A stretch of 35,345 nt of DNA from a virus: positions 1 through 35,345 of the IMG/VR virus record IMGVR_UViG_3300005663_001968; one strand, 5' to 3'. Below the pieces are notes generated by a model. It was given only the letters and a program-made list of their open reading frames with translations. It made no database searches and was not told where the DNA came from. The translations under genes were made by a program, and so were the position numbers. Within the stretch, counting starts at the first letter, position 1; the number at the start of each line of letters is the position of its first letter. Below, in pieces: positions 9,927-33,171 of this stretch.

Positions 9927-10298
9927 ATGAACGCCGACGAGATCGCGATGAAGTTAGCCGAGGCTATGGGTTGGAAGAAGTGGGATGCCTTAAGCGAGGA
10001 TAAAGGCTGGATTGAGGGCGACAGTGTCTTCGTCTATCATCCCAGTGGTATCGCCGATTCCCCTCGATTTCATCCCGACACCCGTGGTGACCACATATGG
10101 ATCTGCCTGGAGTGGGCGCAGAAGAAATTCGGGCCGTTCCGAACAACTCTCAATGAAGATCAATTGAATCCTAATTTGGAATGGAGAGAATCGTGGTTCG
10201 GAGAGAACACTCCGGCTACCTATCAGGACGAGAGAGACAATTTCCTTGAGATTGATCCATTGCACATTGCGCTGGCGATCCTGAAGGCATTAGGATGA
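9927..10298 (+). CDS. Hypothetical phage-type protein
   Basis: This is a 123-residue protein. The opening (AMKLAEAMGWKKWD) and the close (IDPLHIALAILKALG) resemble small phage ABA-sandwich proteins, which carry an early AxxLGW-like motif. The similarity is weak. It overlaps the next gene by four bases. Confidence 0.55.
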   Translation: MNADEIAMKLAEAMGWKKWDALSEDKGWIEGDSVFVYHPSGIADSPRFHPDTRGDHIWICLEWAQKKFGPFRTTLNEDQLNPNLEWRESWFGENTPATYQDERDNFLEIDPLHIALAILKALG

Positions 10299-15915: not shown

Positions 15916-16011
15916 ATGAAAGTCAAAAGCATGAAAAAAGCATTCCCGAATGCATTTGCTGACGGGATAGAGGGCATCGGGGTGTGCCCACGGAGGTTAA
16001 GCGTAGCATGA
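15916..16011 (+). CDS. Mini-ORF encoding the last 25 residues of TnpB
   Basis: This 31-codon ORF (MKVKSMKKAFPN...CPRRLSVA) matches the C-terminus of the TnpB at 30112-31314 from the residues AFPN to the stop. Within the shared coding part three of five base changes are synonymous. It opens with an ATG that TnpB lacks here and ends at a TGA overlapping the ATG at 16008. It is either a decayed tnpB tail or a leader that couples translation to the next gene. Confidence 0.45.
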   Translation: MKVKSMKKAFPNAFADGIEGIGVCPRRLSVA

Positions 16012-16072
16012 CTACAGATACCTCTGAGAGTTTTGAAGAACGGCCCGGTTCAACACCTAGTTTTTCGGAACG
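15931..16072 (+). mobile_element. Orphan IS605-type right end, tnpB-less remnant
   Basis: These 142 bases align without gaps to 31234-31375, the tnpB 3' end plus right end, with 131 identical positions by my count. Identity stops abruptly on both sides: before about 15931, and after TTTTTCGGAACG ending at 16072. No tnpB body or left end is nearby, so this is either a deletion remnant or a mobilised, retained right end. The terminal GTTC/GAAC pairing seen in the intact copy is kept. Confidence 0.85.
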
Positions 16073-16092
16073 CACCCTGGTACATAGCAACC
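15938..16092 (+). ncRNA. Predicted omega-type guide RNA (orphan copy)
   Basis: In IS605-family elements the guide RNA scaffold is transcribed from the tnpB 3' end through the right end, and the guide is the flanking sequence just beyond it. By that rule the scaffold here is about 15938-16072 and the guide starts at 16073 with CACCCTGGTACATAGC. The guide differs from the one at the intact element. Expression, processing and pairing with TnpB are inferred, not shown. Confidence 0.5.
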
Positions 16093-16451
16093 AAGAACGA
16101 AAGAAGAAACGACCAGGTGAATCTCGAATCATCTACGTGGATGGAGATCGAGAACGCTACCTATGGGGGATAATCATCGAAGAAAACGATCGTGGCATCA
16201 TCATCTCTCGGAACGATGGCAATCACGAGATCAAATGGGACAATATCCAACGCGTGGACCCCCCGCAGAATTCTCACGATCTATCCCTTGTTGTCTTTAC
16301 AGATGGAAATCGGGACCGGGGCCTATGGGGGACAATCATCTCTCGGAACGATTGGGGCATCGTGCTGAAACACAAAAACGGCACCTACCGTTTCGCGTGG
16401 TCAAAGATCAAGAGGATAGATGAGCCATCGACGCCAACCGTCCAATCCTAG
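16008..16451 (+). CDS. Two-repeat beta-barrel protein with transposon-derived N-terminus
   Basis: The first 22 residues of this 147-residue protein (MTTDTSESFEERPGSTPSFSER) are encoded by the orphan right end, which also supplies GGAGG 11 bases before the ATG. After a basic linker come two similar blocks of about 45 residues: IIYVDGDRERYLWGIIIEENDRGIII...IKWDNIQRVDPP and LVVFTDGNRDRGLWGTIISRNDWGIVL...FAWSKIKRIDEP. Each resembles a small Sm/SH3-like barrel, so this is an internal duplication. The function is unknown. The native start before the insertion cannot be seen. Confidence 0.65.
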   Translation: MTTDTSESFEERPGSTPSFSERTLVHSNQERKKKRPGESRIIYVDGDRERYLWGIIIEENDRGIIISRNDGNHEIKWDNIQRVDPPQNSHDLSLVVFTDGNRDRGLWGTIISRNDWGIVLKHKNGTYRFAWSKIKRIDEPSTPTVQS

Positions 16452-19822: not shown

Positions 19823-20265
19823 CAGAAATCTCGCCCAAGGACCTGGTCTACATTGAGATGGCCGGCAACGGCGGCCATCTAGGCAATGTCCCAGATAGAA
19901 AAGAAGGCGCCCTACTAGTCAACCAAGATAGCCGGATTAAAGGCATTGGTTATTTCAAAACGAATCTTCCAGAGGACGACTGGTACCTAGACGAATGGTA
20001 CCTGGACCCAATCGAGATCCTTCTACTACATACAACCCCGACGGACCGAGTTGGTGCCACCATCTACACCAACGGCCCCGTCCAAAGAAACCAAGCCCAA
20101 TTACTACACGAAGCTGGTGTGCATCGCGTAGTGCTACAAGACCCTCAACAAGATCGAGAGGGCGTGCCATTCATGGTCGCCAGAGAAATCCAAGTGGATG
20201 AAGTTACCGGTGACCTCAATTCCAAGCAAGGAGAGAACGAAGATGAAAGACAGGAAAACCCCTGA
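19819..20265 (+). CDS. Hypothetical protein, possibly a degenerate deaminase fold
   Basis: A TTG start with AAGGAG 8 bases upstream gives 148 residues. The segment DRVGATIYTNGPVQRNQAQLLHEAGVHRVVLQDP has the strand-turn-helix-strand order of dCMP/cytidine deaminases (GATLYtxxxPCxxCaxxxxxaGixrVvy). The catalytic PCxxC is replaced by PVQRN and no clear HAE motif is visible. If homologous it would lack the zinc site. This is a weak structural inference. Confidence 0.5.
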   Translation: MTEISPKDLVYIEMAGNGGHLGNVPDRKEGALLVNQDSRIKGIGYFKTNLPEDDWYLDEWYLDPIEILLLHTTPTDRVGATIYTNGPVQRNQAQLLHEAGVHRVVLQDPQQDREGVPFMVAREIQVDEVTGDLNSKQGENEDERQENP

Positions 20266-20875
20266 ATCCTACAACTCCTACAACTGGGACGAACTAGTTT
20301 CCAACTGCATCGCTGATGAAACAAAAGTAACCTTTCGAGGCGCCCCCTACTATCTCCGCCAGAAGGACCGATACTACATCGGTGCGCTGCCGCCACCCCA
20401 ATTACTCCTTCACCGAGCAATTTGGACATTCTGTAATGGGCCCATCCCACCAAGACACCACATACATCATATCGACCACAATCGACAGAATAATCACCCA
20501 TCCAATTTGAAGTGTATGAGCATATCCGAGCACTCCAAACATCACGTTCCATATAGAGAGTCAAAGTCAACCCGTTCAGAAAAAGAAGACCACGTGATTA
20601 TTGACCTCTACGCACAACTCAAAAGTGTTATTCGAGTTGGGATGGCAGTAGGCCGATCACAACGATTCGTCTGGGTAGTCCTGAATGAACACAGAATCAC
20701 CATGGACGGATTTGGCGGGGGTAGTAGTCCGAAGCTAACAGTCCAACAAGTTTCGGAAATCAAAGTCCTGCTCCGGAAAGGGAGCTTAATGCAACAAGAG
20801 ATCGCTCGTGAGTTCAATGTGAGCCCATCAGTGATCTCTCGCATCAAAACCGGCAACTATACCGGGCAGAGATAA
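20243..20875 (+). CDS. HNH endonuclease with C-terminal helix-turn-helix
   Basis: I chose the ATG at 20243 because AAGGAGA precedes it. This gives 210 residues and a 23-base overlap with the upstream gene. The HNH core lies at about residues 57-100: LLHRAIWTFCNGPIPPRHHIHHIDHNRQNNHPSNLKCMSISEHSKHH, with the HH, N and H positions expected. A C-terminal segment (KLTVQQVSEIKVLLRKGSLMQQEIAREFNVSPSVISRIKTGNYTG) is a clear helix-turn-helix. The layout matches free-standing homing endonucleases of viral genomes. Confidence 0.82.
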   Translation: MKDRKTPESYNSYNWDELVSNCIADETKVTFRGAPYYLRQKDRYYIGALPPPQLLLHRAIWTFCNGPIPPRHHIHHIDHNRQNNHPSNLKCMSISEHSKHHVPYRESKSTRSEKEDHVIIDLYAQLKSVIRVGMAVGRSQRFVWVVLNEHRITMDGFGGGSSPKLTVQQVSEIKVLLRKGSLMQQEIAREFNVSPSVISRIKTGNYTGQR

Positions 20876-22291: not shown

Positions 22292-25200
22292 GTGGGATGG
22301 ATAATTGCCAGTGATGCACTCGAAGCGACCGCTCGCTTGATGGGGCTCCCCAGGGCATGGGGATCCACCATCCAACACCGCGGCACAGACGAAGGTGTTT
22401 TCAAGCGGCGCAAAGCGGGCGGAGAGCGCCACGGCATCCTTACTGCTGAAGCGTATGGAGTACTCGTCAACAAAGGCTGGCCGATCCAGATCAGTATCAC
22501 CAACTACGATGGCAACAACTACACCGATTTCCAACGGTTTGCTATCTACGACTTCGATTCGGACCAGCCCGATCTCTGCAAGATCCCACTGGCCATGGTC
22601 TGCGAGTTTCAAGACTCATCTAATGTCCATTACCTCAACACCGACAGCGGCGTCAAAGGATATCATAACTGGGTCCCGTTCGACGCCTCGATCCATCAAG
22701 ATGACGTCAGGAAGTACCAGAACTGGGTTTTCGCCTCACTAGCCAAACAATACACCACAGAGGAAAATGGTGTCATCACCGGCTTTATCCAGCTCGACGA
22801 GAATAGTTGGTACTGGATCCCACCAGAACACCCATGGAACCCTCAGACCAACATCAAAGAACACCCCCATGTCCATATCGAAACCCTGATCACCCGCGGC
22901 TTTGGATCGATGATCAAGGGCATCTTCTCACCACACCAGAAGGATCGAACCCGCATGTCCCTGCCAATGACGCTGGCACAGATTCAGAAGCATGATCGAT
23001 CCCAGCCTATCACCGATGCCGATATCAAACGTGGTGAGAACCTCGTTCGTAGATCAAAACGAAACCACTACAAACACATCCTTGAACTGATCGGCTCCCG
23101 GGAAAGAGACGAGCCAAAATCAAAGGAACCACGCATATTCCAATGGGCTCGAGAAGGACGAACTAAGTTCACGATCCCAGCGCCAGAAGAAGACATCACC
23201 AAACTCGAGCTCCTCACCAACCGGTCTCCAGAACAGGAACAGGAACTACAAACAGCCATTCAACTCCACAACACCCTGCAATATACCCTCAGTGAAATGG
23301 TAGGCAGAATCCTCAATGTCCCATGCCTGACCCAATGCTTCGAGATCTCCCTCTCCAGACCGGGGGTCTACTGGGAACGAGTCAATCTGGTTATCGCATT
23401 GGCCAATATGGGCTACAGCCGCGAACAGATCGCCTACTTATTCCGGCACGAAGTCAATGACGCCGTCGACAATGCCAATAGGGGCATTACCGAATACCAG
23501 GTAGATTACTGGTTCCGCCGAAAATACAGAGGCCGATGTGAATACTTCCAGGAACTCAAATCCAAACACCACTGTTGTGATCTTCCGTGTGGTAGGCGAT
23601 CCCCGGATCAACTGGACCCAGATCCAGACTTTCCGCAACTAACCCGGGCCGCCGACTTCTCCCTCGCATACGACAGATCTGAAGAAATCCTGGACATGGA
23701 CGCCAAATTCATTCTGGCAGAAAAGGGCACGCGCTCGGGTTTTACAACGGCTCTTCCCATCACGGCGAAGGGTAAGGGCCTCTCGATATTGTTCTCCGTA
23801 CCCAGGACATCCATCAGTGAGCGGACTTTTCCAGAAGCAATGCGGGTAGGCCGCCGCTACAAGGGCCAAACCATGAAGGGCTTTGTTTGGTCCAGTAATA
23901 TGAAAACATGTTTGATTCGGGCTCAACAGGCCGCCGACCATGAGAAACGCACCGGCCTCCCCCTGGTTCCATCCATCCCCGTCCCCCGGGAAGACTGCGA
24001 CAAATGCCACTACGCACTGAAACACGGCGGCCGTAAATGCCTGCCAATAGTGGACCAACCCCTGTTTCAATCAGATCTGGATCCCTCGGCTTGCATGCAA
24101 GAAACTTTCAGAGATGAGAAAGACGACTTTGATGTTGGATTCATCACCTACTCCAAACTCTACTCGCTGATGAATACCCCCACCGACGACGCCCTCGAGA
24201 TGAGGGAATACATCTCATCGTTTGATGTCATCGTACTGGACGAGATCAGCCAGTTTATTGACGTCTCCCCGCTCGAACTGATCCTACGGACCGTACCGAA
24301 AGAAGACCAACCAACTTACAATTTCTTCGACGCCCTGGACAGGGAGATGCGCCAACTACTCCACCAATTCCCATCTAACTACATGGTAGAGGAAATAGTA
24401 GAGTACATCGACGACTTCACCGTCACCTTCCAGGACCTCAAATGGTACGACCACGGTGATCCAGTAGACAACTACCTCAACGACTCCGAACGGGAAAAAC
24501 TGCGCCAGAAAACCAACCCCTACCTCATGCTGTTATACGGCTACGAGCTAGATACTGGACATAAGGTCAGCCGTATCTACAACGTGCTGGCACTGCTCAC
24601 CGAGGAACGATGGCGAGTCTCCAAGATCGAGAGCGGCAACTATGAAGAACAGATTAGTTTCATCCTACCAACCAAGCACATGGAGATGATGGCATGGCTA
24701 CAAAGTCTGCCCGGGAAAATCATCGTCACAGACGCAACGCTTCCATACACCAATATGGAAAAGATCCTCCCCGGCATCGTCAGATACCACTTTGGAGATC
24801 CGAACAATACCGCGGCAACACAGATTGTCATTGCCGACAGCCGCCACATCAGTCAAAGCAGGATCTTCAAGGACATGGACCGACTCCGCAATTATGTCGA
24901 GGATGTTCTCAGATTCCACGGCAACAACAACGTCATGTTCGTTCTGCCCAATACTCTATCTTGGAAACGATTCAAGCAGGAATTTCCCCACATCCCACCC
25001 GAGAATGTCACCTACCAGAGATCCAACGAAACCATTGGCGTGGCCAACAACCTACGAGCAATGGTCGTCGTCGGCGGCACCTACTCCCCACAAGAAGCAT
25101 TCGACTGGGTAGCCCTGGACATGGTGGATGCCAACCCAGTAGATTACTTTCCCAACAATCCAAACCCAACCGATGCAGAAAAGCACGATTACGCCATCAA

Positions 25201-25654
25201 AGTTCTCTCACCAAAGATATGGGAGATCAACGCCCGCAATACCTTCGTCCAGACCATTGGCCGAGTCAAGGATCCAATCGCCAAGACACCCAGTGTGGTC
25301 TACTGCTACGGTATCCGGCAGGCCAGGATCAATCAACTGATGAAAGACTGTGTCGGCATACCAAAAGTGATCGAGATCCCAGATCAACCAGGTGAAATGA
25401 TGCATGTTACCGTTGGGGAATACTGGTGGAACGAACACAATGTCAACTTCAATCGCCACGAGATTCAGATCATCCACCTCCATCGCAAAGGGACTACCAA
25501 GGCCATGATCAAGAGAATTGTAGAAAACCGACTTCCAGCCGCTTTCGTTGACAATGTGTTCGACAAACTCAGATTGGACGATATGACATTCCAAAGTTAC
25601 GAAGAAAAAGCGGATGAGCGGGATAATTCAGATCCTTCAACCGCTACGGCCTAG
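22292..25654 (+). CDS. Archaeo-eukaryotic primase fused to helicase-like domain
   Basis: This is a 1120-residue product with a GTG start directly after the upstream stop. Residues 1-220 carry AEP primase motifs: YDFDSD (86-91) for the catalytic acidic pair, TDSGVKGYHNWVPF (117-130) matching sGxxGxH, and GFGSMIKGIFSPHQKD (203-218) where a final conserved basic and H-containing motif is expected. The second half resembles an SF2-type helicase: a nucleotide-loop-like AEKGTRSGFTT at about 475 (no Lys), VIVLDEISQF at about 645 (Walker B), IIVTDATLP at about 809, and FVQTIGRVKD at about 983 (motif VI). A Cys-containing insert (CDKCHYALKHGGRKC) lies between. It probably primes and unwinds DNA during genome replication. 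Confidence 0.8.
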   Translation: MGWIIASDALEATARLMGLPRAWGSTIQHRGTDEGVFKRRKAGGERHGILTAEAYGVLVNKGWPIQISITNYDGNNYTDFQRFAIYDFDSDQPDLCKIPLAMVCEFQDSSNVHYLNTDSGVKGYHNWVPFDASIHQDDVRKYQNWVFASLAKQYTTEENGVITGFIQLDENSWYWIPPEHPWNPQTNIKEHPHVHIETLITRGFGSMIKGIFSPHQKDRTRMSLPMTLAQIQKHDRSQPITDADIKRGENLVRRSKRNHYKHILELIGSRERDEPKSKEPRIFQWAREGRTKFTIPAPEEDITKLELLTNRSPEQEQELQTAIQLHNTLQYTLSEMVGRILNVPCLTQCFEISLSRPGVYWERVNLVIALANMGYSREQIAYLFRHEVNDAVDNANRGITEYQVDYWFRRKYRGRCEYFQELKSKHHCCDLPCGRRSPDQLDPDPDFPQLTRAADFSLAYDRSEEILDMDAKFILAEKGTRSGFTTALPITAKGKGLSILFSVPRTSISERTFPEAMRVGRRYKGQTMKGFVWSSNMKTCLIRAQQAADHEKRTGLPLVPSIPVPREDCDKCHYALKHGGRKCLPIVDQPLFQSDLDPSACMQETFRDEKDDFDVGFITYSKLYSLMNTPTDDALEMREYISSFDVIVLDEISQFIDVSPLELILRTVPKEDQPTYNFFDALDREMRQLLHQFPSNYMVEEIVEYIDDFTVTFQDLKWYDHGDPVDNYLNDSEREKLRQKTNPYLMLLYGYELDTGHKVSRIYNVLALLTEERWRVSKIESGNYEEQISFILPTKHMEMMAWLQSLPGKIIVTDATLPYTNMEKILPGIVRYHFGDPNNTAATQIVIADSRHISQSRIFKDMDRLRNYVEDVLRFHGNNNVMFVLPNTLSWKRFKQEFPHIPPENVTYQRSNETIGVANNLRAMVVVGGTYSPQEAFDWVALDMVDANPVDYFPNNPNPTDAEKHDYAIKVLSPKIWEINARNTFVQTIGRVKDPIAKTPSVVYCYGIRQARINQLMKDCVGIPKVIEIPDQPGEMMHVTVGEYWWNEHNVNFNRHEIQIIHLHRKGTTKAMIKRIVENRLPAAFVDNVFDKLRLDDMTFQSYEEKADERDNSDPSTATA

Positions 25655-26598: not shown

Positions 26599-27492
26599 AT
26601 GAAAGCGATCGATCTCTTCTCTGGTTGGGGTGGCTTCACCCTCGGCGCCGAACAAGCCGGAGTCGAAGTTGTATGGGCCGGCAATCATTCTAAAATCGCC
26701 GTGGAAGCACACCAGATGAACCATCCAAACACCCTCCACGTCTGCCAGGATCTACGCCAGGCCGACTGGTCCCTACTCCCCGACTACGATCTCCTGCTAG
26801 CGTCTCCGGCGTGCCAGGGCCACAGCCCAGCCTCACAACCACAGAGACATGCCTACCACGACGCTCTCAGAGCCACTGCATGGGCTGTGGTGGACTGCGC
26901 TGACGCCACCGAGCCATCCACGATCGTCGTAGAAAACGTGCCGTCATTTCGCCGCTGGAGGCTCTATCCGGCCTGGAAACACGCCCTAGAAATTATGGGC
27001 TATCGTCTCGAGGAACGGTTCCTGACCGCGTCTCACTACGGCACCCCACAACGACGCAAGCGATTATTCCTGTTCGCCACCAAAGAGACCCTGGATCTGG
27101 ATCTGGTACCTGGCCTCGAGCCCGCGATAGGCGAGCATATCGAATGGGGAGCCGATGTCCCATGGAGGAAGATCACCAATAGCAGCCACAATGTCCAGGC
27201 ACGGATCGCCAAGGGTCGTCGCAACCACGGCAACAGTTTCATCACACAGCACGTCACTGGCCACCCCGGAATCGGTCTCGACGAGCCAATCCGTACCATC
27301 ACCACCAAGGACCAATACGCTCTCGTGTACGAAGATCACTACCGGCCTCTGACTGTGAGAGAGACGGCCCGTGCCATGGGCTTTCCCGACTCGTATCGCT
27401 GGCCGACGCATGCGACACGGAAGGAACAGATCCGGGGCCTAGGTAATGCTGTATGCCCCCCTCTGGCACGAAGAATCGTGGCCGAGCTGTGA
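26599..27492 (+). CDS. C5-cytosine DNA methyltransferase
   Basis: This is a 297-residue protein with GGTGATCTC before the ATG. The motifs appear in order: I (DLFSGWGGFTLG, 5-16), IV (ASPACQGHSPAS, nucleophile C72; the family usually has PPCQ, here SPACQ), VI (VENVP, 111-115), VIII (QRRKRLFLFA, 151-160), IX (RPLTVRETARAMGFPDSY) and X (GLGNAVCPPLARRI). It transfers a methyl group from S-adenosylmethionine to cytosine C5. No restriction endonuclease is adjacent, so self-protection or regulation is likelier than a full restriction-modification pair, though an HNH gene follows. Confidence 0.9.
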   Translation: MKAIDLFSGWGGFTLGAEQAGVEVVWAGNHSKIAVEAHQMNHPNTLHVCQDLRQADWSLLPDYDLLLASPACQGHSPASQPQRHAYHDALRATAWAVVDCADATEPSTIVVENVPSFRRWRLYPAWKHALEIMGYRLEERFLTASHYGTPQRRKRLFLFATKETLDLDLVPGLEPAIGEHIEWGADVPWRKITNSSHNVQARIAKGRRNHGNSFITQHVTGHPGIGLDEPIRTITTKDQYALVYEDHYRPLTVRETARAMGFPDSYRWPTHATRKEQIRGLGNAVCPPLARRIVAEL

Positions 27493-27508
27493 AATGGTGG
27501 GAATAGTT

Positions 27509-28045
27509 ATGACAACTGAAATAGATATAGAAACACTACGAACCCACTACTCTGAATTGTTTTGGTCCAACGTCCTTAGACCAGATCCTGGTGCTTGTTG
27601 GGAATGGCAATCTGGTTGCAACGCATATGGATATGGCCAGTTCATGATATGGAAAGTGAAGAAGGCCCCGGAAATATCTCACAGAATGGCATGGATGCTA
27701 ACATATGGACCTATACCACCGGGAAAGTGTGTATTGCATCGCTGTGATAACCGCCGCTGCTGCAACCCCTCTCACCTTTTCTTGGGAACGAGACCGGACA
27801 ACACAGCCGATATGGTCCACAAAGAGAGACATGCCAGAGGAGAACGCGCAGGCAACGTGAAGCTCGCCAAAAAACAAGTTATTGAAATCGAGCAACTGGC
27901 CATAGAAGATACCAACCAACGAGAGATTGCCATTTGGTACAGTATAACACAGCCAAGAGTTTCACGGATCAAACACCACCGCATATGGGTACACCTATGG
28001 CCCTGTAAAGGAAACAGAGATCGGCACCAATCACTATGTCTCTAA
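27509..28045 (+). CDS. HNH endonuclease (HNH_3 type) with C-terminal helix-turn-helix
   Basis: The ATG at 27509 with GGTGG upstream gives 178 residues. The ATG at 27494 is possible. The core SHRMAWMLTYGPIPPGKCVLHRCDNRRCCNPSHLFLGTRPDNTADM (about 58-102) is the HNH_3 pattern with HRCD, CCNPxHL and LGTxxDN. Residues about 119-160 form a helix-turn-helix (KKQVIEIEQLAIEDTNQREIAIWYSITQPRVSRI). It is probably a homing or free-standing endonuclease. The region is more AT-rich than the methyltransferase gene before it, consistent with acquisition. Confidence 0.83.
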   Translation: MTTEIDIETLRTHYSELFWSNVLRPDPGACWEWQSGCNAYGYGQFMIWKVKKAPEISHRMAWMLTYGPIPPGKCVLHRCDNRRCCNPSHLFLGTRPDNTADMVHKERHARGERAGNVKLAKKQVIEIEQLAIEDTNQREIAIWYSITQPRVSRIKHHRIWVHLWPCKGNRDRHQSLCL

Positions 28046-30074: not shown

Positions 30075-31375
30075 TCCTACGGGCGTACTAGGTATTTGTA
30101 AGAGTGATATTGTGGTAACCACGTTGAACCGGATCGAATCGTTCTACATTAAGCCGGACCCGGACCTGTCCCATTGGTGCCACCTGGCGAAGAATCTCTA
30201 CAATGAAGCCAACTACATCGTCAGGCAGGAGCTCTTCCATAACGGCGTATGGCTCCGGTATTACGATGTATGGTTGGCACTGAAAGAGACGAGCGATAAT
30301 TACGACGAGTTGCCGACTGGTACAGCTCAGCAGATTCTTCGCTTGATCGACAGTGCATGGAAATCCTTCTTTGCTTCTATCAAGGAGTGGAAAAAGCATC
30401 CAGAGAAGTTCTTAGGAAGACCCAAACTACCAAAATACAAGCCGAAGGATGGCGAGTTCGTCCTCCCGTTTACCAATCAACAGGTTCGTCATAAAGACGG
30501 ACTAATCAAACTACCGAGAAAGTTCGACGTTGAAGTGAAAACCAGACTGAATGAAGGAACGAACATTAGAGGAGCGCGTATCGTACCCCAGGGAGTAGGC
30601 TATCGTCTGGAAGTGATCTATGATAAGGAAGTACCAGAGCCACCACTAGAATCAACCCGAATAGCGGGCCTGGACCTTGGTGTAAACAACCTTGTAACTA
30701 TCGGGACCAACATCGGTATTGAGCCGATTGTGGTCAATGGTGGGGTTGTCAAATCATGGAACCAGTTCTATAACAAGAAGAGGGCACAACTGAGATCCGT
30801 ACTGGACCGGCAAGGAGGAAAGAGCAGTAGACGGCTCAACCGCCTCTATCTGAAGCGGAAGCGGAAGATGCAAGACTATTTCCACAAAACCAGTCGGAGA
30901 ATCATCGACTGGTGCGTCCAGCATAACATCGACACAATTGTCATCGGCCACAACGACGGTTGGAAACAGAACGTTCGACTTGGCAGACGGAACAACCAAA
31001 ACTTTGTCGGTATCCCGTTTGGGATGCTGATCAGCCAACTGGAATACAAGGCGGAAGACGTCGGTATCCGGATAGTGCTCCAGAACGAAGCGCATACCAG
31101 TAAGTGTTCGTTTCTCGACAACGAACCGGTCTGTCACCAGAAGCAGTATGCTGGCCAACGGGTCAAGCGTGGGCTGTTCCGTGCCAGTGATGGTCGTCTA
31201 ATCAACGCTGACCTACAAGCCGCCTACAATATCGTGAAGAAAGCATTCCCGAACGCATTTACTGACGGGATAGAGGGCATTGGGGTGTGCCCACGGAGGT
31301 TAAGCGTAGCATGACTACAGATACCTCTGAGAGTTCTGAAGAACAATCCGGTTCAACACCCGGTTTTTCGGAACG
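30075..31375 (+). mobile_element. IS605/IS1341-type element carrying only tnpB
   Basis: The element comprises tnpB and a right end that is repeated in the orphan copy at 15931-16072. That repeat fixes the right boundary at about 31375 (TTTTTCGGAACG). The left boundary is not defined, because only one full copy is present; I set it after the previous stop. No TnpA transposase is in the window, so mobility would need TnpA in trans. Confidence 0.7.
30112..31314 (+). CDS. tnpB: TnpB, RNA-guided nuclease family, with rearranged RuvC site
   Basis: This is a 400-residue protein from the GTG at 30112 (a TTG at 30124 is possible). The frame is open further upstream only because it overlaps the previous gene. 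RuvC I is AGLDLGVNNLVTIG (D188). RuvC III is INADLQAAYNI (D367). The usual RuvC II Glu position (IVIED) reads TIVIGHNDGW with Gly279. A candidate substitute Glu, E326, lies in QNEAHTSKCSF, before RuvC III. The usual CxxC...CxxC zinc finger is reduced to two isolated Cys. Such rearranged catalytic sites are reported in some TnpB branches. By homology it cuts DNA using an RNA from the element's right end. The last codons overlap the next ATG. Confidence 0.85.
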   Translation: MVTTLNRIESFYIKPDPDLSHWCHLAKNLYNEANYIVRQELFHNGVWLRYYDVWLALKETSDNYDELPTGTAQQILRLIDSAWKSFFASIKEWKKHPEKFLGRPKLPKYKPKDGEFVLPFTNQQVRHKDGLIKLPRKFDVEVKTRLNEGTNIRGARIVPQGVGYRLEVIYDKEVPEPPLESTRIAGLDLGVNNLVTIGTNIGIEPIVVNGGVVKSWNQFYNKKRAQLRSVLDRQGGKSSRRLNRLYLKRKRKMQDYFHKTSRRIIDWCVQHNIDTIVIGHNDGWKQNVRLGRRNNQNFVGIPFGMLISQLEYKAEDVGIRIVLQNEAHTSKCSFLDNEPVCHQKQYAGQRVKRGLFRASDGRLINADLQAAYNIVKKAFPNAFTDGIEGIGVCPRRLSVA

Positions 31376-31395
31376 ATCCGGGGCCCGGCTTGAGA
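31241..31395 (+). ncRNA. Predicted omega-type guide RNA of the TnpB element
   Basis: By the IS605 rule the scaffold covers the last tnpB codons and the right end (to about 31375), and the guide begins at 31376 with ATCCGGGGCCCGGCTT. GAAC (31341-31344) can pair with GTTC (31351-31354), or that GTTC with the terminal GAAC (31371-31374). Both options are conserved in the orphan copy. The 5' boundary is approximate, and expression is inferred. Confidence 0.55.
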
Positions 31396-31595
31396 GCGAG
31401 TCGGACGCCGACCAGTTCATCAAGTGGTTTCTGCAGATCCACCCCACTGCTCCAAACGATCTTCAACGACACATACTGGACTTCTTGGAATCCATGAATT
31501 TCTACGAATGGGAGACAGCCTGGATCCGGGACTTCTACCATCTCGACAGAAAGGACCAATTGGAGTTCCTCCAACAAATCAAGGTCTACCTATGA
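31311..31595 (+). CDS. Hypothetical protein with transposon-derived N-terminus
   Basis: The ATG overlaps the tnpB stop (ATGA), with GGAGG 11 bases upstream, both inside the IS right end. The first 22 of 94 residues (MTTDTSESSEEQSGSTPGFSER) come from the element. The rest (ADQFIKWFLQIHPTAPNDLQRHILDFLESMNFYEWETAWIRDFYHL) is helical and comes from flanking DNA in the same frame. It is probably a host gene whose 5' end was replaced by the insertion. The function is unknown. Confidence 0.6.
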   Translation: MTTDTSESSEEQSGSTPGFSERSGARLESESDADQFIKWFLQIHPTAPNDLQRHILDFLESMNFYEWETAWIRDFYHLDRKDQLEFLQQIKVYL

Positions 31596-32402: not shown

Positions 32403-32602
32403 GCATGAATAGAGTCGCTACGGGACGTCTTGTCGGTAAATGGACTTGTGGTGTGTGTAAACACGACTTTGTCACAAGGGAAGGCGATCTTTTCAAATGT
32501 CCTAACTGTGGAACGGAAGCTGGTCCTGGTAGATTGATAAATTTGGACGACTATCCATTTGACCTGCCTCCGTTTATATTGGAACGAGTTCCGTCGAAAT
32601 GA
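32399..32602 (+). CDS. Small zinc-ribbon protein (67 aa)
   Basis: TCGVCKHDF and KCPNCG form one ribbon with typical spacing, followed by an acidic/Pro tail. It overlaps both neighbouring genes by four bases. Confidence 0.65.
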   Translation: MSMNRVATGRLVGKWTCGVCKHDFVTREGDLFKCPNCGTEAGPGRLINLDDYPFDLPPFILERVPSK

Positions 32603-33171
32603 TCTACGATTGCATTGCAACAGACCCACCTTGGCCGGTCGAAACAAGACGAGGAACAAAATCAGGCAAGCCAGGGGAGTCCTATCCGACTATGGATATT
32701 GCGTCGATAGTATTGGTTCTCGAGGATCTGGCCACCCAGGTTCGGCCTCACGGACTGCTCATAGTGATCGGACCTGATCTGTTCAGAACTCCGTTAGACC
32801 GCGATTTTGGTAATCTTCGTCGACGCAGACCTGGAATATGGTGGAAGTGTAATGGTGGAATGGGATATGGTCTGAAGCGCGATTTCGAAGACATTCATTA
32901 TTGGACGGGCAAAGACTGGAAACCAAGATCTTCAATTCCTGGTGTGGTACCCGCCCCGCGGGGTCACGATCGATACACGACGAGTAAACCAATCACTCTA
33001 TGGACCCATCTACTGGAAGCATTCTGTCATGAAGGATGGACAATCTATGACCCGTTTGCTGGAGGTGGATCGGTTGGAGATGCCGCGAGAATTCTAGGAA
33101 TGGAACCAGTAATGGGCCGGGAAGAGATCGCACCTCCTGGACCTCCACAAAAATCCCTATGGGAATTTTGA
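32599..33171 (+). CDS. DNA adenine (N6)-type methyltransferase
   Basis: This is a 190-residue protein. DPPW at 9-12 is motif IV, and YDPFAGGGSVGDAAR near residue 152 is motif I, so the order IV then I indicates a beta-class (circularly permuted) amino-methyltransferase. LLIVIGPDLF is the strand expected after the active site. It methylates the exocyclic amino group of adenine, or possibly cytosine N4. The enzyme is short for the class, so the target-recognition region is minimal. No partner endonuclease is adjacent. Confidence 0.78.
   Translation: MIYDCIATDPPWPVETRRGTKSGKPGESYPTMDIASIVLVLEDLATQVRPHGLLIVIGPDLFRTPLDRDFGNLRRRRPGIWWKCNGGMGYGLKRDFEDIHYWTGKDWKPRSSIPGVVPAPRGHDRYTTSKPITLWTHLLEAFCHEGWTIYDPFAGGGSVGDAARILGMEPVMGREEIAPPGPPQKSLWEF

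What the first reader, a model, noticed from the sequence alone, without database searches (positions are those of the whole stretch)
15931..16092. Second, tnpB-less copy of the TnpB right end, predicted to encode an extra guide RNA with a different guide
The 142 bases at 15931-16072 match 31234-31375 at 131 positions with no gap, and the match ends sharply on both sides. In IS605 elements this segment is the guide RNA scaffold, and the flank beyond it is the guide. The two flanks differ (CACCCTGGTACATAGC versus ATCCGGGGCCCGGCTT). So one TnpB could be served by two guides, one of them detached from its nuclease gene. In a virus this could be a minimal RNA-guided system aimed at a rival element or a host locus, or simply a deletion scar.
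Basis: partly seen in the sequence, partly recalled or inferred. Interest (0 to 1): 0.82.

Follow-up and report, generated by a model that had tools for sequence, protein, structure and literature searches.

The report
Second, nuclease-less TnpB guide-RNA scaffold
A virus genome whose nearest TnpB relatives are archaeal carries one RNA-guided nuclease gene (tnpB) and, 15 kb away, a second intact copy of just its guide-RNA scaffold next to a different sequence, so one nuclease could be served by two guides; similar nuclease-less copies turn out to be common in archaeal genomes, and no target or RNA evidence is known yet.

Summary
The repeat is real: 15931-16072 equals 31234-31375 at 131/142 positions, and all 11 differences are transitions. 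31234-31375 is the 3' end of a TnpB gene (30139-31314) plus its right end. A covariance model built only from Thermoplasmatota relatives finds exactly these two places in the window (41.4 and 41.1 bits; next best 9.4), so both are guide-RNA (omegaRNA) scaffolds. Predicted guides are then GGTACATAGCAACCAA and GGGGCCCGGCTTGAGA, which differ. A weaker alternative boundary would give both copies the same guide seed. tnpB-less copies of this scaffold are not unique: in one complete host genome 5 of 8 copies lack tnpB, keep about 30 nt of tnpB plus the scaffold, and carry different guides. In another, stem 1 is rewritten by compensatory changes. The viral copy keeps the same minimal unit (33 nt plus scaffold) and breaks no shared helix. 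Best reading: a stand-alone omegaRNA able to load the virus's TnpB in trans. A passive remnant remains possible. No target, TAM, left end or transcript could be shown.

The parts
15931..16078 (+). tnpB-less scaffold copy (W1): last 27 tnpB codons incl. stop (15931-16011) plus right end to the predicted scaffold end
   Evidence: 131/142 identity with 31234-31375; model R1 match 15964-16078, 41.1 bits, E 4.6e-10
15972..15989 (+). stem 1 (15972-15977 with 15984-15989) whose loop GGGGUG pairs with the 3' tip as a pseudoknot
   Evidence: model R1 alignment; covariation of helices 1 and 2
15992..16025 (+). stem 3 (GGAGGU 15992-15997 with ACCUCU 16020-16025)
   Evidence: fold and model R1
16030..16071 (+). 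12-bp terminal stem (16030-16041 with 16060-16071); its 18-nt loop holds 5 of the 11 differences
   Evidence: fold
16079..16098 (+). predicted guide of W1 (GGTACATAGCAACCAAGAAC), start uncertain by about 2 nt
   Evidence: end of R1 match at 16078; inference
15916..16011 (+). small open frame MKVKSMKKAFPNAFADGIEGIGVCPRRLSVA = tail of TnpB behind a GAGG motif
   Evidence: sequence
16008..16451 (+). downstream gene whose upstream in-frame starts (ATG 16008, GTG 15984) both lie inside the scaffold; W1 guide lies inside its coding frame
30139..31314 (+). TnpB (OrfB_IS605, Cas12f1-like_TNB); RuvC D179, E317, D358 present
31234..31379 (+). scaffold linked to tnpB (W2), tnpB tail plus right end
   Evidence: model R1 match from 31267, 41.4 bits, E 3.8e-10; 3' end by pairing of AUCC with the stem-1 loop (inference)
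31380..31399 (+). predicted guide of W2 (GGGGCCCGGCTTGAGAGCGA), start uncertain by about 2 nt
   Evidence: inference from W1 boundary
31311..31595 (+). second downstream gene whose start (ATGA overlap with the tnpB stop) lies inside the scaffold

Best explanation
W1 (15931-16078) is a stand-alone omegaRNA: the minimal guide-RNA unit of the virus's own TnpB, copied away from the gene and now followed by a different guide. Shown: both copies are scaffolds of one covarying family, and W1 breaks no shared helix. Inferred: W1 is transcribed as part of the + strand gene array; TnpB (30139-31314) binds the scaffold within that transcript and trims its 5' side, as TnpB is known to do with its own mRNA; the RNP is then guided by about 16-20 nt from 16079, so one nuclease has two addresses. 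The target is unknown. By the known TnpB logic the guide names the sequence beside the scaffold, so the most likely target is the allele of this site that lacks the insert, in related virus genomes (retention or homing).
For: Model R1, built from 19 Thermoplasmatota right ends and no window sequence, finds W1 and W2 with nearly equal scores and nothing else above 9.4 bits. The structure covaries: 18 of 27 pairs have changes on both sides, 0/500 shuffles, and helix slides destroy it. Of the 11 W1/W2 differences, 1 lies in 66 commonly paired positions (P 0.009, with the caveat that the fold came from the same sequences) and none breaks a pair (9-10% of random sets of 11 transitions do as well). 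Infernal places the W1 tip at 16078, and its pseudoknot pair 20-136 is G-C where relatives have U-A. The W1/W2 similarity starts 33 nt before the scaffold core; tnpB-less host elements keep the same unit, starting at -28 to -39. In G132, 5 tnpB-less copies end at the scaffold tip and carry five different guides. Catalytic residues of TnpB are present. [quoted passage not shown]
Against: No transcript data. No target for the W1 guide in the window, phages, plasmids or 77 Thermoplasmatota genomes beyond chance. No related virus with or without the insert was found. The depletion of differences in helices is only suggestive. The W2 pseudoknot under this boundary is weaker (AUCC, one G-U). The exact scaffold/guide border is predicted, not measured.
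Confidence: 0.5

Rival explanations
1. Passive remnant: W1 is the leftover of a full tnpB insertion, or of a partial recombination between virus relatives, with no guide function; structure survives because it is still young.
For: Truncated tnpB copies of many lengths with good scaffolds occur in host genomes (L124 105, L126 about 115, L135 65, L138 about 52 residues), so decay of tnpB before the right end is ordinary. 27% of random sets of 6 transitions would also leave all common pairs intact. No left end upstream of W1.
Against: The 5' edge at -33 coincides with that of the multi-copy tnpB-less elements (-28 to -39) rather than a random point of 1.2 kb; no helix broken; W1 has the better pseudoknot of the two copies.
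Confidence: 0.33
2. Same-seed reading: the scaffold ends earlier, at CACC (16057/31360), so 16060-16072 and 31363-31375 (GTTTTTCGGAACG, identical) are the start of both guides. W1 would then be a second source of nearly the same guide, made by a segmental copy that carried the guide along.
For: CACC is complementary to the GGUG of the stem-1 loop in both copies; GTTCAA just before it matches the ISDra2 scaffold's 3' end (-6G to -1A, PMC10097598) and the Asgard right ends.
Against: The would-be guide pairs over 12 bp with the scaffold: only 30/2000 (fold) or 4/2000 (duplex) random 14-mers of the window do as well for W2 (248 and 100 of 2000 for W1), and guides of relatives do not. The model places the W1 tip at 16078. 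Methanohalobium L005 has the same long terminal stem followed by its tip.
Confidence: 0.25
3. Translation-start cassette: the block was copied or kept because it supplies the start (ATGA overlap with the tnpB stop) and N-terminus of the following gene, not as RNA.
For: Both following genes have their upstream starts only inside the block (ATG 16008, ATG 31311), in the same frame.
Against: In that frame 4 of 5 codon changes alter the protein (F/S, R/Q, P/S, S/G), whereas RNA helices are intact; the retained unit extends well upstream of the start and matches the RNA unit of tnpB-less elements.
Confidence: 0.1

Closest known systems
ISDra2-type TnpB with its reRNA/omegaRNA (Karvelis 2021; structures 8bf8, 8ex9, 8h1j)
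   Same: TnpB homologous over residues 56-369 (E 1.1e-11); scaffold overlaps the 3' end of tnpB; stems plus pseudoknot next to the guide
   Different: W1 has no tnpB; RuvC-II glutamate of ISDra2 replaced by N in the IGHN motif, with a conserved E at EAHTSK instead, as in all relatives checked
IS607-like TnpB elements of Thermoplasmatota (this work, L053, L068, L074 and others)
   Same: TnpB 46-55% identical; scaffold core GGGATAGAGGG...CCCACG(A/G)AG(T/G)TTAAGC
   Different: The host elements carry a recombinase-like gene upstream (read from sequence) and a left end; the viral copies have neither
Stand-alone omegaRNAs acting with IscB (Altae-Tran 2021, cited in PMC9581776)
   Same: guide-RNA scaffold detached from its effector gene
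   Different: IscB not TnpB; function shown there, only predicted here
RAGATH-18 reRNAs of IS607 TnpB (PMC11061315)
   Same: TnpB guide RNA; 36% of 16,029 RAGATH-18 RNAs are not next to a TnpB gene
   Different: No Rfam family, RAGATH-18 included, matches W1 or W2
TldR systems of prophages (PMC13418256)
   Same: virus-borne TnpB relative with guide RNA
   Different: TldR is nuclease-dead and has one linked guide; here catalytic residues are present and the second scaffold is unlinked

Membership tests
TnpB (OrfB_IS605 / Cas12f1-like TNB) RNA-guided nuclease, 30139-31314 | OrfB_IS605 and TNB domains above gathering score | tested here: met
   83.4 bits (cutoff 30.5) and 40 bits (cutoff 26.3)
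TnpB (OrfB_IS605 / Cas12f1-like TNB) RNA-guided nuclease, 30139-31314 | RuvC D-E-D active site | tested here: inconclusive
   D179 and D358 present; canonical RuvC-II E is N (IGHND); conserved E317 (QNEAHTSK) is a candidate substitute shared by all relatives checked
TnpB omegaRNA scaffold (W1) | match to a covariance model of TnpB right ends built without the window | tested here: met
   41.1 bits, E 4.6e-10; next best non-copy 9.4 bits
TnpB omegaRNA scaffold (W1) | pseudoknot between stem-1 loop and the 3' tip beside the guide | tested here: met
   GGGGUG with CACCCU in register, U-A to G-C change against relatives; for W2 only 4 pairs with one G-U
TnpB omegaRNA scaffold (W1) | expressed RNA bound by TnpB | not testable with these tools
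   no RNA data
Stand-alone (trans-acting) omegaRNA | scaffold without adjacent effector gene | tested here: met
   only 27 tnpB codons before W1; tnpB 14 kb away
Stand-alone (trans-acting) omegaRNA | guides an effector supplied in trans | not testable with these tools
   needs experiment
Mobile IS200/IS605 or IS607 element (W1 or W2) | tnpA or recombinase and left end, or left end for a non-autonomous copy | tested here: not met
   no tnpA among the ORFs upstream; no left-end similarity upstream of W1 or W2

The most novel reading that the evidence does not exclude
A virus runs a two-address RNA-guided nuclease: its TnpB is loaded both by its own linked guide RNA and by a detached, immobile omegaRNA (W1) with a different guide, embedded in a coding operon. 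The detached copy is kept by selection to attack a second site, such as W1-lacking relatives of the virus or a rival element.
Probability: 0.25. Interest if true: 0.75.

Novelty: new variant of a known kind. Interest (0 to 1): 0.52.

Why it matters
TnpB is normally viewed as one nuclease with one guide fixed by its insertion site. A detached scaffold beside a different sequence, in the same virus genome as the nuclease, would be a minimal step from transposon nuclease towards a multi-guide system like CRISPR. The relatives found here (multi-copy tnpB-less scaffolds with differing guides and compensatory rewriting in Thermoplasmatota) make the idea testable: one TnpB with many natural trans guides.

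Tried and rejected
Exact-pattern scans of IMG/VR for the scaffold and for the flanks read as same-seed guides: none. Virus relatives through neighbouring genes: one topoisomerase-like gene shared, no syntenic genome, so the empty site could not be seen. Rfam: nothing. I first favoured the same-seed boundary (scaffold ending at GTTCAA or CACC). The random-flank folding test, the model's placement of the W1 tip and the long terminal stem of L005 turned me to the later boundary, and the earlier one is kept as a rival. A near-match of GTTTTTCGGAACG at 10135-10147 (1 mismatch) fits chance. A 19-base match in Vibrio phage PVA1 to the W1 flank has E 0.6 and starts at guide base 6: chance. Two 1-mismatch guide hits in 77 genomes: about 3 expected by my estimate. 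Closer W-like right ends in 80 and 77 further genomes: none.

Full report
Observation. The window is the whole of an IMG/VR virus record. Positions 15931-16072 and 31234-31375 agree at 131 of 142 bases without gaps; all 11 differences are transitions. It is the only long direct repeat, and BLAST finds no third copy.

The nuclease. 30139-31314 is a TnpB (OrfB_IS605 and Cas12f1-like TNB above gathering score), a homologue of ISDra2 TnpB. D179, E317 and D358 are present; the ISDra2-type RuvC-II glutamate is N here and in all relatives checked, which share a conserved E at E(A/E/S/D)(H/Y)TSKCS. The nearest TnpBs are from Thermoplasmatota (up to 55%), an Altiarchaeum virus (54%) and a Methanohalobium plasmid (53.5%). 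Where upstream DNA of the Thermoplasmatota copies was read, several are preceded by a recombinase-like frame, as in IS607 elements (my reading of the sequence).

The scaffold. I aligned 19 Thermoplasmatota right ends found through TnpB matches (A2; a few of them are truncated tnpB copies), with their common end ...AACCT, built covariance model R1 with no window sequence, and scanned the window with filters off. Exactly two places stand out: 31267 (41.4 bits, E 3.8e-10) and 15964 (41.1 bits, E 4.6e-10); the next is 9.4 bits. On 35 sequences the structure including a loop-to-tip pseudoknot has 95% of cells paired, 18 of 27 pairs with changes on both sides, 0 of 500 shuffles as high on any measure, and collapses when partners are slid. 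So both window copies are TnpB guide-RNA scaffolds. No Rfam family matches.

Where the guide starts. In ISDra2 the pseudoknot strand is at -6 to -2 and the guide follows (PMC10097598). For W1 the model puts the 3' tip at CGCACCCU, ending at 16078. There the stem-1 loop GGGGU(G) pairs in register with (C)ACCCU, including a U-A to G-C change against the relatives. It also uses the 12-bp terminal stem GUUUUGAAGAAC / GUUUUUCGGAAC. In W2 the matching strand is AUCC (31376-31379; four pairs, one G-U), and the model's own alignment of W2 stops early, so the W2 border rests on W1. With one gap the W1/W2 similarity ends at the pseudoknot strand (ACCC/AUCC), so homology and predicted scaffold end together. 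Predicted guides: GGTACATAGCAACCAA... (from 16079) and GGGGCCCGGCTTGAGA... (from 31380). A rival border at CACC (16057/31360) would make GTTTTTCGGAACG the start of both guides. Against it, that stretch is unusually complementary to the scaffold (fold: 30/2000 random 14-mers of the window do as well for W2, 248/2000 for W1; duplex: 4/2000 and 100/2000), while true guides of relatives are not. I give the later border about 0.75.

Is W1 more than a scar? The 11 differences avoid helices (1 in 66 paired positions of 142, P 0.009; the fold came from the same sequences, so this is only suggestive), and none breaks a shared pair (9-10% of random sets of 11 transitions do as well; 27% of sets of 6). 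Five of the 11 fall in the 18-nt terminal loop (Fisher P 0.005). In the frame of the following gene 4 of 5 codon changes are non-synonymous, so that protein is not what is conserved.

The relatives give the strongest context. Model R1 finds the scaffold in 40 of 77 genomes of one Thermoplasmatota family, often in many copies. In the 1.96-Mb single-contig genome G132, 8 copies are listed; 3 follow a full tnpB and 5 do not (L119-L123). Those five are about 430-bp elements, 91-97% alike, running from -333 to the scaffold tip. Their left end resembles the left end of the full elements (62 bp, 69-75%), they keep only 30 nt of tnpB before the scaffold core, and each is followed by a different sequence. 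In G138 another tnpB-less family (L127-L132, L134) has stem 1 rewritten from GGGUAU/AUACCC to UGCCUU/AAGGCA, and L137 to GGCUCC/GGAGCC: pairing kept, sequence changed. That is selection on the RNA in copies without a nuclease. The W1/W2 similarity starts at -33, the same edge as in these families (-28 to -39). Ordinary truncated copies of other lengths also exist, which keeps the scar reading alive.

Mechanism. Shown by computation: two scaffolds, one nuclease gene, differing flanks under the better border, W1 structurally intact. Inferred: transcription with the surrounding + strand genes; recognition and 5' trimming by TnpB, which can process its own mRNA (PMC10278001); guide of about 16-20 nt; target equal to the site without the insert. 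W1 and W2 both lack a left end and tnpA, so within this virus they look immobile. Targets: the W1 guide has no second match in the window, no significant match in phages or plasmids, and two 1-mismatch hits in 77 Thermoplasmatota genomes, about what chance gives by my estimate. The W2 guide was tested in the window only. Host, TAM and empty site are unknown.

Comparison with known systems. Stand-alone omegaRNAs that work with the related effector IscB are known (PMC9581776). Of the RAGATH-18 guide RNAs of IS607 TnpBs, 64% lie next to TnpB and so 36% do not (PMC11061315). Prophages use nuclease-dead TnpB relatives with one linked guide (PMC13418256). A virus with an apparently intact TnpB plus a detached, structurally intact second scaffold did not turn up in the papers I could search; Meers 2023 and Altae-Tran 2023 were not held. 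I therefore call it a new variant of a known kind, with function unproven.

Noticed in passing
L119-L123 (G132), L127-L132, L134 (G138), L137 (G413): Thermoplasmatota genomes hold multi-copy tnpB-less elements that keep the omegaRNA scaffold; in G138 and L137 stem 1 is rewritten by compensatory changes, and the G132 copies carry five different guides. Possibly natural trans guides for the TnpBs of the same genome.
   Followed up: partly
15984-16451 and 31287-31595: Both genes after the scaffolds have their upstream start codons only inside the scaffold block, in the same frame, giving two unrelated proteins a similar N-terminus (MTTDTSES.EE..GSTP.FSER).
   Followed up: partly
16110-16440: The protein after W1 contains two similar units of about 45 residues (VDGDRERYLWG..., TDGNRDRGLWG...) that resemble a small all-beta fold; only weak Pfam hits (DUF2982, YcxB).
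   Followed up: no
15931-16072 versus 31234-31375: All 11 differences between the two copies are transitions, an extreme ratio that wobble pairing, coding constraint or a mutational bias could explain.
   Followed up: partly
20198-20875 and 27446-28045: Two HNH_3 endonuclease genes plus a C5 cytosine methylase (26599-27492) and an N6/N4 methylase-like gene (32599-33171): several selfish or modification genes besides tnpB.
   Followed up: no
22292-25654: 1120-residue protein with no Pfam or PHROG match; possibly a primase-helicase by its motifs, not tested.
   Followed up: no
L047, L063, L066: Further C-terminal tnpB fragments with intact right ends in Thermoplasmatota, consistent with frequent 5' loss of tnpB.
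   Followed up: partly
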